Part shown: positions 49,626 to 53,000 of the stretch, one piece after another | Layout of the letters: each line of letters begins with the position of its first letter | Numbering within the stretch: position 1 is the stretch's first letter | NCBI GenBank assembly: GCA_945876035.1 | Contig: CAMCMU010000003.1 | Span: 1 to 64,000 of the forward strand | Length of the DNA: 64,000 nt | Origin: Schlesneria paludicola DSM 18645 | GTDB lineage: Bacteria > Planctomycetota > Planctomycetia > Planctomycetales > Planctomycetaceae | Direction of reading: 5' to 3' | Made by a program: the position numbers and the translations under genes | Notes under the pieces: generated by a model | Seen by the model: only the letters and a program-made list of their open reading frames with translations | What the model was told of the DNA's origin: nothing | The model's database searches: none

Positions 49626-49839
49626 GGTTCAGCACCAGAGAGGAATGACACCACCACACTCGAAAACAACAGGAGTGGGAATCCGCCACCGAGATCGAGG
49701 ATTTCCAAAGCCGATCGAAAGGGACGGGGACTCCCCTTAGAAAACTTGAGGCCTGAAGCGGACGGATGTGTCGCCAGCCCAAAACAGCCCCGGCCTTCTG
49801 GTGCCACTTTCGATTGTCGTCCCCTCATCGAAAAACGAT

Positions 49840-49867
49840 TTGACACCATCAGAAGCCGACCTATATT
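49840..49867 (+). promoter_or_regulatory. Sigma70-type promoter of a predicted small RNA
   Basis: TTGACA (49840-49845, perfect -35) and TATATT (49862-49867, five of six at -10) are separated by 16 bases. Transcription should begin near 49873-49876. No gene follows on this strand; instead there is a terminator 100 bases on. Confidence 0.65.
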
Positions 49868-49874
49868 CCTAGTC

Positions 49875-50012
49875 AGCGGGGAACACCCCCGCCGACCATA
49901 AAACTTATTCAAAGAGACCGATATACGAGTCAGCTTCGCTCAGGGGAGTCGGCAATTTGAACGCGGCAAGGAGGAACAGGGAGTTCCGAGGGGACCTTGC
50001 CGCGTTTTTTCT
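49875..50012 (+). ncRNA. Predicted structured small RNA, about 138 nt
   Basis: The segment between the promoter at 49840-49867 and the terminator at 49960-50016 has no convincing reading frame; the one frame that enters it ends at 49901. It starts with a GC-rich hairpin (GCGGGG 49876-49881 with CCCCGC 49887-49892), then has an A-rich single-stranded part (ATAAAACTTATTCAAAGAGA), and ends in a long terminator stem that encloses a second hairpin (GGAAC/GTTCC 49973-49987). It lies between two minus-strand genes and is antisense to neither coding region. It does not resemble 4.5S, 6S, tmRNA or RNase P RNA to me. The alternative is that the hairpin serves the minus-strand gene, but the T run is on the plus side. 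Confidence 0.55.
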
Positions 50013-50016
50013 TTTT
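49960..50016 (+). terminator. Strong intrinsic terminator
   Basis: ACGCGGCAAGG (49961-49971) and CCTTGCCGCGT (49995-50005) form a perfect 11-bp stem, extendable by one A-T pair, enclosing an inner 5-bp hairpin. Six T, a C and five T follow (50005-50016). The T tract faces the plus strand, where no protein gene precedes it. Confidence 0.85.
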
Positions 50017-50045
50017 CTGTCACGCGAAAACAAAAAACTTTGAAT

Positions 50046-53000
50046 TCAGGGTTTCCCAAAAGGGATTCCTTCCTCCACGTATCGCCAGTTCTTCAGAAAC
50101 AGGATCAAATCCGTCATTTGTTCCACGGAAATCATTTTCTCCAGACCGACCGGCATGAGCGACATACCGGTCGAGCGGATTTCCTCGATCTCGGCTTTCA
50201 AAATCGACTCCTCCTTGCCTCCTGGCAGACCGATCGTCAGTGACGATGTGGTTTCGAAGGGCACAGTCCCCAGATAATTCTTCCGATCTCTTGTCCGAAT
50301 TTTGTAGCCAAAATAATTGGCGTTCACATCTCGATTCGGATCAAGAATGCTGATCAAAAGGGACTCTGTTGTCCGGCAGACGGAGTCGGCGAGATCGGGA
50401 CCAACATTGACACCGATCCCCGCGACTCGATGACAAGAAGCACAGTTTTTCTCGAATAGCAGACGGCCGCGAGCGATGTCACCCGTCCTCTCCAATGCCG
50501 GTCGATAAGTCTTGACGATTGTCGCTCGAGCGGAGGAATCCTCGGTCTCAAAGATCTTTTTGGTACGGCGACGATACGCCGGATTTTTGTCCATTGTTAA
50601 TCGAATTTCGTGAATGGAATCGATCTCGTTCGTCTGAATCGTCCCCTTTTCGAGTTCCTCCAGCAGCATCCCCGTCGTCGTTTCATCCGCGAGTAAGACG
50701 TCAATGATTGCCCTCCGCAACGGGTGCATCTGTGTATTGAAATGTTTGAGCAGACTCGGACCGATCGATGCATCCCGGAGTGTCGCAAGACCCTCGAGAG
50801 CCGCCAGACGCACAGGAGTCGGTTCTGATGAAGTGGCCAGTTCCAGCAATGACTGGACGATTTCGGGGCGATTGACGAGGTGCAGCGTGTTGATGGCAAC
50901 CAGTCGGAGTGATTCGGTTTGGCTCGTAGAACTGGCTGTTTTCTGCACAGATCTCAGGAGTTCGTTAAACAACCGACGTTCGGACTCCTCAAGGAGTTCC
51001 AGATGAGTCTCAATCGACTGACCTTGGCGAGAGAGCCCGTTGGCAAGCCCTCGGATCGCCGCCATTTGGACATCTGTCGCTGCTTCTTGACTCCAAAGCG
51101 GAGGTGCAAAGTTCAAGACCCGTTTAAAAATAGGGGGCGATGAGTCCACTTTGATCTGTTGTCCAAGGACAACAGTCAACACTTCCACCAATTCAACGGC
51201 TGCTTTCACCGGCTGCGTCAATGTACTCCAATCAGCCAGCAAATCTAGGAGCAATTCCTCAGGAGGCGAAGCATTGAGCGAACCGACTGCGAGACGCATC
51301 CAAGGATCGCTGGCCCCCTTGCGAAGCAAACGAACAAGAGCAGCACGCGCTGCCGGAGCATCAGCGCTGCGACTGGTCAAGTCGAGTATCAGACGAAAAC
51401 GAACCCGCTCGTCGGTCTCTTCTGTCACCAAGTCATCCGTCTCATTCGACAACAGTTCTTCGAGGTTGTCGCCGATCGCAACGACGACTTGCTCGCGAAC
51501 ACGGGGATCCCGATTTTCGGTTTCCGACCACGCCAGAACAGCAGGAGTCAGACGCGGGTCCAGCAATTTCATTAGCCACAAAATGTGCAATCGACTCCTT
51601 GTCAGACGGTTGTTTTTCCAATTGTGCTTGAGGGCGGCAAGAACTTCGTCAGGAGGCCGTTCGAGCAACAATCGGGAGGCCGTCTCGCGGTGCCATGCAT
51701 TGCGATGTTCCAGAAGTTCAATCAAGTCTCGGGTTGGCATGTTGTCCAATAAGTCGTGAGGGCGTTCTTGAAGTGCAGGAGGCTCAACAGACGTAATACG
51801 CCAGATCCGACCGCGATCGGTTGCTTCATGGAGGTTCTGGCGAATAGTCCATTCGGGCGGCATTTGATTCCGGTGATCGATCACGGGGCGGTACATGTCG
51901 ACCACGTAAAGCCCGCCATCGGGACCATTGGCAAGATTCACCGGCCGGAACCAACTGTCCGTCGATGCCAGAAATTCTTGCCCGTGCTCGCCAGGATGGC
52001 CGACGAATGTTGATCCCGCCGGAGCCAAGACTTCCCGATGCACGAGATTCGCCGTCGGCTCACAAGTAAATGCGTTCCCCTTGTATTCCGGCGGCAGTGC
52101 ATCTCCACGATAAATCTGAACACCGCGGGCCGCCGCGAAATGAACATACTGCTGCAGCGAGGAGGCCGCATGTTGACTGAGGCGGTAGAGTTTTGAACGC
52201 TCTCCAAAAGCGGCCACGTCCTGAATGGTTGTCTGCACCGGAAGGAATGGATTTCGCTTGATGACCTCGTTTTCCAAGACCACGTGTTGTACCGGATTGC
52301 GGTTCGAGCAGACAAACCGATTTCCAAAGTCATCAAAGCACAAACCGAATTGACCGTTTCCTGAAGCGACACCGTATTCCCCAGAAAGCGGATTGAATCG
52401 AAAGTCGAACCCCTCGATGGGCACCTGCTGCCCCCTCAATTTCCATTCCGGCTTTGTGGCAACAACGATTCCACCGCAATGGCCACTGGCGACATAGATC
52501 CAACCGTCTGGACCAAGTGTCGGATGGCTGACGAGTTGCTGCGGATTCACCCCGAGAAATCCGGAAAACCAGCTTTCTTTGAAATCTGCTTTTCCGTCGC
52601 CATTGCGATCGGCCAGAAAAGAAATCTCGCCTGCCTGCGTCACGATCACGCCATCTCTCCACGGCGTGAGTCCCGTGACAAATAACAGTTCGTCCGCAAA
52701 GACCGTGACAGACTCGTAACGACCGTCTCGATTCAAATCGAAAAGTCGTTTAATCCGCGATCTGGGTCTGCCATTCGAACCGTGTTTTGGCCCTAGCGGT
52801 AAGTCACGCATTTCGGCGACCCACATCACGAGGTCCGCACCGAAGGCGATGGCCACGGGATCAATCACATCCGGCTCGCTGACAACCAATTCAATTTTGA
52901 TATCGGATGACGCAAGCAAAAAACTCTTCCGGGCGTTGTCTACAGACAATGGACCGGCCAGGACCGTAGGCTTCTGCACGTCTGTTGCGGTCACTACCGC

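What the first reader, a model, noticed from the sequence alone, without database searches (positions are those of the whole stretch)
49840..50016. Orphan small RNA with its own promoter and terminator
The sequence shows a perfect -35 (TTGACA), 16-base spacer and TATATT -10, then about 138 bases without a coding frame, ending in a perfect 11-bp stem with an inner hairpin and a TTTTTTCTTTTT tract. Promoter and terminator face the same way, opposite to both flanking genes. It does not fit the standard housekeeping RNAs that I know. This is the clearest sign in the window of an undescribed element.
Basis: partly seen in the sequence, partly recalled or inferred. Interest (0 to 1): 0.62.

Follow-up and report, generated by a model that had tools for sequence, protein, structure and literature searches.

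The report
Conserved planctomycete small RNA with G-rich loops
The stretch has the marks of a real small-RNA gene with its own promoter and terminator; it is conserved, mostly as a single copy, across one class of planctomycete bacteria and matches no RNA family we could search, and its G-rich loops look like landing sites for the RNA-binding protein CsrA, which remains to be tested.

Summary
By the criteria the window has one promoter of this quality and one such hairpin with T-tract. A model of the 3' hairpin (R1) hits 154 of 397 genomes of the class, 150 of them once. Across 146 loci a TTGAC-N16/17-TAnnnT promoter lies upstream in 135, against 2 of 130 control stretches. Stems change by paired substitutions while unpaired stretches barely change: apical NNGGA (61 of 63), GAGGGGAC (60 of 63) and, outside the window's family, GGGGA in the 5' part (19 of 20). 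No Rfam family matches; 6S RNA is elsewhere. In relatives the next gene is usually co-directional (112 of 140), often type II secretion/type IV pilus-like; in the window it is convergent, so there the RNA must act alone.

Best mechanism, inferred: a CsrA-binding RNA working like RsmX/Y/Z. CsrA is in 80 of 80 genomes tested, at least two matches each; Hfq is in 0 of 40. Rivals: a base-pairing RNA with a G-rich seed, or a regulated leader of the secretion operon. No expression or binding data were available.

The parts
49840..49845 (+). -35 box TTGACA
   Evidence: TTGAC-type box upstream of the hairpin in 135 of 146 loci
49862..49867 (+). -10 box TATATT, spacer 16
   Evidence: spacer is 16 in 132 and 17 in 3 of the 135 loci with a promoter
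49874..50012 (+). inferred transcript, about 139 nt (start placed 7 nt after the -10 box by rule of thumb; 3' end within the T tract)
   Evidence: inference from promoter and terminator; no RNA data
49872..49896 (+). 5' hairpin (GTCAGCGGGG / CCCCGCCGAC)
   Evidence: sequence differs in relatives
49927..49953 (+). middle hairpin, variable in sequence; holds a GGGGA
   Evidence: consensus fold of 21 relatives: 6 pairs, each with some double changes and 2-5 broken rows; the window's own pairing here is poor in the R2 alignment; GGGGA in this part is unusual in the window's family, 3 of 38 loci
49960..50006 (+). conserved 3' hairpin: 12-bp outer stem 49960-49971 with 49995-50006
   Evidence: 100% of cells paired, 6 of 17 pairs with double changes
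49973..49987 (+). inner hairpin GGAAC-AGGGA-GTTCC; GGA in the apical loop
   Evidence: apical GGA kept in 61 of 63 loci not collected by a pattern that fixes it
49988..49995 (+). GAGGGGAC: 7-nt unpaired 3' side of the internal loop plus the first C of the right arm
   Evidence: 60 of 63 loci
50005..50016 (+). T tract of the intrinsic terminator

Best explanation
A small-RNA gene, transcribed on the plus strand from a sigma-70-type promoter and ended by its own terminator, belonging to a family conserved in the planctomycete class of the window (SHOWN by sequence: conserved promoter, covarying stems, near-invariant loops, mostly one copy per genome; transcription is inferred). Its terminator hairpin presents GGA in an apical loop and a GGGGA bulge; relatives outside the window's family add a further GGGGA in a 5' loop. 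MOST LIKELY (inferred): these loops bind CsrA dimers, so that the RNA takes CsrA off mRNAs, as RsmX/Y/Z and CsrB do. The RNA often lies just before type II secretion/type IV pilus-like operons in relatives, which suggests those genes as part of what it controls. In the window it lacks that neighbour and would act only in trans. My odds: about 0.95 that this is a real conserved RNA gene; the confidence given below is for the CsrA mechanism.
For: Family: R1 hits 154 of 397 class genomes, 112 of the 124 same-family genomes in the table; 4 of the 154 have two matches. R2 hits 36 of 392 genomes drawn from the phylum, with only three marginal hits outside the class. Structure: all 351 pair cells standard in 22 sequences (21 distinct), 6 pairs with double changes against 1.5 in shuffles; in 41 short-form members 17 of 22 pairs with double changes against 10.2. 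Loops: apical GGA in 61 of 63 while the base before it varies (G 50, A 6, T 5), GAGGGGAC in 60 of 63; GGGGA in the 5' part of 19 of 20 loci outside the window's family. Promoter in 135 of 146 loci, 2 of 130 in control stretches. Partner: CsrA in 80 of 80 genomes, 2-17 matches each, 6 in this genome, with the RNA-binding face conserved by eye in one protein of this genome and some relatives (key residues recalled); Hfq in 0 of 40, controls positive in 5 of 14. Accessible GGA: mean 2.39 per transcript against 1.07 in dinucleotide shuffles, at least 2 in 51 of 51 sampled of 140 (these share the conserved hairpin, so are not independent). CsrA recognises GGA, best as A(N)GGA in hairpins (PMC10729762, passages); RsmX/Y/Z are just over 100 nt and act as decoys (PMC9037510, passages).
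Against: No binding or expression data. The preferred A two bases before GGA is rare: 3 of 61 apical loops (the window is one of them). Accessible GGA sites are few, and in the window itself barely above shuffles (2 against 1.5). In the window's family only 3 of 38 loci have the extra GGGGA in the 5' part. GAGGGGAC is conserved over more positions than a GGA site needs. CsrA occurs in all 80 genomes tested, with or without a hit to the RNA, so co-occurrence proves nothing. L072 and L079 lack the apical GGA. No Rfam Csr/Rsm model matches at E up to 10.
Confidence: 0.42

Rival explanations
1. A trans-acting base-pairing RNA whose near-invariant GAGGGGAC (and GGGGA loops) is a seed that pairs with C-rich sites (GUCCCCUC) near start codons.
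For: GAGGGGAC is kept in 60 of 63 loci while the stems change; G-rich unpaired loops are exposed; it has an intrinsic terminator with U tail.
Against: No Hfq in 40 of 40 genomes. Complement sites are not enriched within 400 bases downstream of the RNA in 116 co-directional loci, a few of them duplicates (GTCCCCTC in 1 against 1.25 in mononucleotide shuffles, TCCCCTC in 2 against 4.35). The base before the apical GGA varies. No genome-wide target search was done.
Confidence: 0.27
2. A regulated leader: in many relatives the RNA is the 5' leader of a secretion/pilus operon, and a factor binding the loops sets read-through of the terminator; the free RNA is the terminated product.
For: Downstream gene on the same strand in 112 of 140 loci, upstream gene in 70 of 128; 54 of 140 have a first gene from a prepilin-, secretin- or PilM-like cluster. 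In some, such as Blastopirellula marina (L179), the prepilin motif begins 48 nt after the hairpin match, leaving no room for another promoter.
Against: 28 of 140 loci, the window among them, have a convergent neighbour. Length and sequence between promoter and hairpin vary widely (predicted transcripts of 74-239 nt), and no conserved antiterminator was seen, though none was searched for specifically. Some co-directional neighbours carry promoter-like boxes of their own in the printed sequence (L074, L076, L077, L080, by eye).
Confidence: 0.2
3. A structured RNA that binds another, unknown protein or the ribosome (the 5' loop GGGGAGG can mimic a Shine-Dalgarno sequence).
For: Conservation beyond GGA; GGGGAG in the 5' part of 19 of 20 loci outside the window's family.
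Against: GGGGAG is in the 5' part of only 1 of 38 window-family loci, the window itself.
Confidence: 0.1

Closest known systems
RsmX/RsmY/RsmZ and CsrB/CsrC (CsrA/RsmA decoy RNAs)
   Same: Similar length to RsmX/Y/Z in many members, intrinsic terminator, GGA in hairpin loops at more than one place, host has CsrA.
   Different: Different phylum, no Rfam match, few accessible GGA sites (mean 2.39), A at -2 mostly missing, one site built into the terminator hairpin as an asymmetric bulge, near-invariant GAGGGGAC.
Hfq-dependent base-pairing sRNAs
   Same: Stand-alone gene, intrinsic terminator with U tail, short near-invariant unpaired stretch.
   Different: No Hfq found in 40 of 40 genomes; no complementary sites enriched next door.
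Terminator-type leaders (attenuators)
   Same: Promoter, structured RNA and terminator before an operon in many relatives.
   Different: Not before a co-directional gene in the window; no antiterminator seen.
6S RNA (RF00013)
   Same: Single-copy RNA of the same genomes.
   Different: The 6S match of this genome is on another contig (G000:C45).
Rhodopirellula-1 motif (Weinberg et al. 2010, PMC2864571)
   Same: A candidate RNA reported partly from planctomycetes; its table row shows no Rfam number (passage).
   Different: Its row marks it 'y' in what I take to be the cis-regulatory column and gives Proteobacteria and Planctomycetes. 

Membership tests
CsrB/RsmZ-type CsrA decoy | GGA motifs in unpaired loops | tested here: met
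   apical GGA 61 of 63, GAGGGGAC 60 of 63; 5'-part GGGGA in 19 of 20 loci outside the window's family but 3 of 38 inside it
CsrB/RsmZ-type CsrA decoy | preferred A(N)GGA context | tested here: not met
   A at -2 of the apical GGA in 3 of 61; the window's AGGGA is one
CsrB/RsmZ-type CsrA decoy | many repeated sites (CsrB 22 GGA; the weaker sponge McaS 4; PMC10729762, passages) | tested here: not met
   mean 3.88 GGA, 2.39 accessible in 51 sampled transcripts: far from CsrB, near McaS
CsrB/RsmZ-type CsrA decoy | match to a described CsrB/CsrC/Rsm model | tested here: not met
   no such match at E up to 10 in window 49700-50100; no match of any family at gathering in the window or in 20 loci
CsrB/RsmZ-type CsrA decoy | CsrA in the host | tested here: met
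   80 of 80 genomes
CsrB/RsmZ-type CsrA decoy | binds and titrates CsrA | not testable with these tools
   needs gel shift or CLIP
Hfq-dependent base-pairing sRNA | Hfq in the host | tested here: not met
   0 of 40
Hfq-dependent base-pairing sRNA | complementary mRNA targets | tested here: inconclusive
   only stretches downstream of the RNA were tested; no enrichment
cis-acting terminator leader | co-directional gene downstream | tested here: not met
   not met in the window; met in 112 of 140 loci
cis-acting terminator leader | alternative antiterminator pairing | tested here: inconclusive
   none in the consensus fold; not searched for specifically
6S RNA | match to RF00013 | tested here: not met
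   6S match of this genome is on contig C45
Rhodopirellula-1 | its consensus sequence and structure | not testable with these tools
   only its table row was visible

The most novel reading that the evidence does not exclude
A class-wide planctomycete counterpart of the Csr/Rsm decoy RNAs, evolved independently in bacteria without detectable Hfq and with two or more CsrA genes, with the CsrA sites built into the transcription terminator, so that one RNA can both titrate CsrA in trans and, where it still precedes a secretion/pilus operon, sense CsrA in cis through read-through.
Probability: 0.2. Interest if true: 0.82.

Novelty: new variant of a known kind. Interest (0 to 1): 0.62.

Why it matters
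The listings of my text searches showed no study of small RNAs in planctomycetes (only the top 25 of 3,287, 15 of 6,609, none, and 12 of 5,175 hits were listed, so this is weak). A mostly single-copy RNA kept through most of a family and in over a dozen further families of the class, with a ready covariance model and near-invariant loops, gives a direct entry. In hosts with no detectable Hfq and two or more CsrA matches, it lets one ask whether CsrA is the main partner of small RNAs there. The recurrent link to secretion/pilus operons gives a testable phenotype.

Tried and rejected
6S RNA: rejected, found elsewhere. Any Rfam family: none at gathering in the window or in 20 loci, 19 of them outside the window's family; at E up to 10 only two minus-strand hits of 13 bits, far below their gathering scores. 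Terminator of the minus-strand cytochrome gene: rejected, no U run on that strand. Small protein: not supported; the stretch between promoter and hairpin varies in length from locus to locus, though two of the three frames of the window's inferred RNA have at most one stop or none, without a methionine codon in the printed translations. Neighbours as clue; distant DUF7133-type homologues of the cytochrome gene are next to the RNA in L084 and L190 and one lies in L183, nothing closer. Complement of GAGGGGAC just upstream of the window promoter (49819-49826): one occurrence, not in the RNA or downstream of its promoter, set aside as chance. Pairing of the RNA with its downstream genes: no enrichment. 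A weak R2 hit in G049 is an ordinary terminator without GAGGGGAC. Family f2: none of its 13 genomes searched reached E 0.001 (best 0.0099).

Selections and drops. A first count of 151 loci still held 5 duplicates; counts on 146 replace it where they overlap, but searches used the larger set. The 118 stretches were collected with a pattern that fixes parts of loop and bulge, so loop conservation is quoted from 63 other loci (22, one truncated locus L019 dropped; 41 from the 40 stretches I chose). These too were found by likeness to the hairpin, so its conservation is partly built in. Of the 118, 112 were confirmed by R1 and 6 dropped as chance. The 41 rows of A4 were picked from short-form loci, leaving out 13 locus names, among them L082 (outside the family, 5' part without GGGGA) and L204; the '41 of 41' invariance of the 5' loop in A4 is therefore partly chosen, and the fair figure is 19 of 20. 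CsrA and Hfq were sought in chosen sets of 80 and 40 handles.

Full report
OBSERVATION. The promoter TTGACA-16-TATATT is the only site with 11 or more of 12 matches on either strand of the window, and the stem with T tract is the only perfect one of 11 bp or more with so T-rich a tail (within the spacer and loop limits of that script). One search gives 4 promoter-like sites in 4 kb against 1.4 expected, this being the best (11 of 12, the others 9). The outer stem is 12 bp. The two neighbours are on the minus strand: an AMP-binding enzyme of the fatty acid CoA ligase family, with high but sub-cut-off scores to olefin beta-lactone synthetases, and a DUF7133/HEAT/cytochrome c protein. The RNA folds better than shuffles (z -3.0).

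RELATIVES. A DNA search of 59 genomes found 23 with a match (the window's own included), one match each; apart from the own genome the matches cover only the 3' hairpin. Read upstream, relatives also carry the -35 and -10 boxes. A covariance model of the hairpin (R1) hits 154 of 397 class genomes, 146 of the 339 of good quality, and 112 of the 124 same-family genomes shown; four of the 154 have two matches. A model of the short form (R2) hits 36 of 392 genomes drawn from the phylum, and outside the class only three with E of 1.8e-4 to 5.6e-4, which I take as chance. Most confirmed records are labelled as planctomycetes: Schlesneria, Gimesia, Thalassoglobus, Planctomicrobium, Fuerstiella, Blastopirellula marina, Aeoliella, a Thermoguttaceae and a Gemmatales bin among them. 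Confirmed L125 and L130 bear labels of other phyla; L125 is weak (33 bits) and has no promoter, and I take both as misassigned contigs.

ANATOMY. In the window the RNA has a 5' hairpin, a middle hairpin of variable sequence and the conserved terminator hairpin. Predicted lengths run from 74 to 239 nt over the 140 entries with a promoter in the undeduplicated set. In 19 of the 20 loci fetched from other families it is 74-86 nt (L077 has 130): a 5' hairpin, then the same terminator hairpin. In 22 sequences (21 distinct) of the terminator hairpin all 351 pair cells are standard, and 6 of 17 pairs show changes on both sides (shuffles 1.5; sliding the partner by 1 to 3 columns leaves 33-52% paired). 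In 41 chosen short-form sequences 91.9% of cells pair and 17 of 22 pairs show double changes (shuffles 10.2; slid versions 4-12). GGGGA is in the 5' part of 19 of the 20 other-family loci but of only 3 of 38 window-family loci. Among 63 loci the apical loop keeps GGA in 61 and GAGGGGAC is kept in 60. Exceptions: L072 and L079 have lost the apical GGA; L082, L099 and L102 have an altered bulge stretch. In two contigs the RNA is tandemly duplicated; in L161 the two terminator hairpins are the same and the upstream parts differ, so the terminator hairpin appears to be the functional core.

PROMOTER. A TTGAC...TAnnnT promoter precedes the hairpin in 135 of 146 loci, with spacer 16 in 132 and 17 in 3; three of the 11 misses lie near contig ends. 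The same expression occurs in 2 of 130 stretches 460-700 bases upstream. The 6S RNA genes of eight relatives do not show this promoter in the 60 bases printed upstream (by eye).

CONTEXT. The AMP-binding gene has no homologue beside a confirmed copy of the RNA elsewhere; the cytochrome gene has only distant homologues (25-30% identity) in L084, L183 and L190 (L162 is the same contig as L084; flanks of the closest relatives were 1.5 kb). Among 146 loci the next gene downstream is on the RNA's strand in 112 of 140 with a called gene, the upstream gene in 70 of 128 (loci are related and genes were called by a simple script, so the nominal P of 4e-13 overstates the case). 54 of the 140 downstream genes fall in clusters whose tested members are prepilin-like (29 and 6), secretin-like (16) or PilM-like (3); of the prepilin-like members tested some are above the Pfam cut-off (L063, L083, L170), some below (L014, L023, L079) and L010 matched nothing. 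In 28 loci the upstream gene clusters with a nadC protein. Elsewhere the neighbour is a cytochrome P450 (L088), a GGDEF protein (L022) or another gene. So the RNA is an independent unit that has often stayed next to a secretion/pilus operon. The window's genome is one of those where it has not; the prepilin-type genes found in this genome are on contigs other than the window's.

PARTNERS. CsrA is present in all 80 genomes tested, 2-17 matches each, 6 in this genome, and the pattern around the RNA-binding face looks conserved in the few proteins printed (by eye; the residues that matter are recalled). Hfq was not detected in 40 of 40 genomes carrying the RNA, while the control search found it in 5 of 14 known genomes. 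CsrA was equally present in genomes without a hit to the RNA, so this is permission, not proof.

MECHANISM. Shown by sequence: an independent, covarying, mostly single-copy RNA gene with conserved promoter and terminator and near-invariant G-rich unpaired stretches. Inferred: transcription, and that those stretches are binding sites. I rank CsrA binding first because GGA in loops is its signature (PMC10729762, passages), because accessible GGA exceed shuffles on average (2.39 against 1.07 in 51 sampled transcripts, though only 2 against 1.5 in the window itself), because the base before the apical GGA is free to vary, and because Hfq was not detected. Against it: the preferred A is mostly missing, sites are few, and GAGGGGAC is kept over more bases than CsrA needs. 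The last point favours a base-pairing seed; a small test for complementary sites next to the RNA was negative, but targets elsewhere were not sought. A leader role is plausible in relatives whose operon begins just past the terminator but cannot apply in the window.

NOVELTY. No Rfam family matches. Text searches (open-access PMC only, long hit lists seen only at the top) gave no description that I recognised in the listings. I read only passages of PMC9029176, PMC10729762, PMC9037510 and PMC2864571. The one published candidate that might overlap, Rhodopirellula-1, could not be compared. That the known Csr decoy RNAs come from Proteobacteria is recalled, not searched to a conclusion.

Noticed in passing
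80 genomes: Planctomycete genomes carry many CsrA matches (2-17 each; 17 in G059, 6 in the window's genome). One match lies in a 525-codon open frame (G064).
   Followed up: partly
L101 (3001-3063 and 3558-3620), L161 (74-136 and 496-558): Tandem copies of the RNA gene a few hundred bases apart, each with its own promoter; in L161 the terminator hairpins are the same and the upstream parts differ, in L101 the apical loops differ too.
   Followed up: partly
28 loci such as L067: A gene of the nadC cluster upstream of and co-directional with the RNA.
   Followed up: no
L125, L130, L115, L195: The RNA on contigs labelled Harrisonbacteria, Nealsonbacteria or Kuenenia: probably misassigned contigs in bins.
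   Followed up: no
families f2, f3, f4: f2 has no match at E 0.001 in 13 of 13 genomes although its members tested have CsrA; among the 154 hits two are of f3 and none of f4.
   Followed up: partly
L074, L076, L077, L080, just after the RNA: Further TTGACA-type promoter-like boxes before the next co-directional gene (by eye).
   Followed up: no
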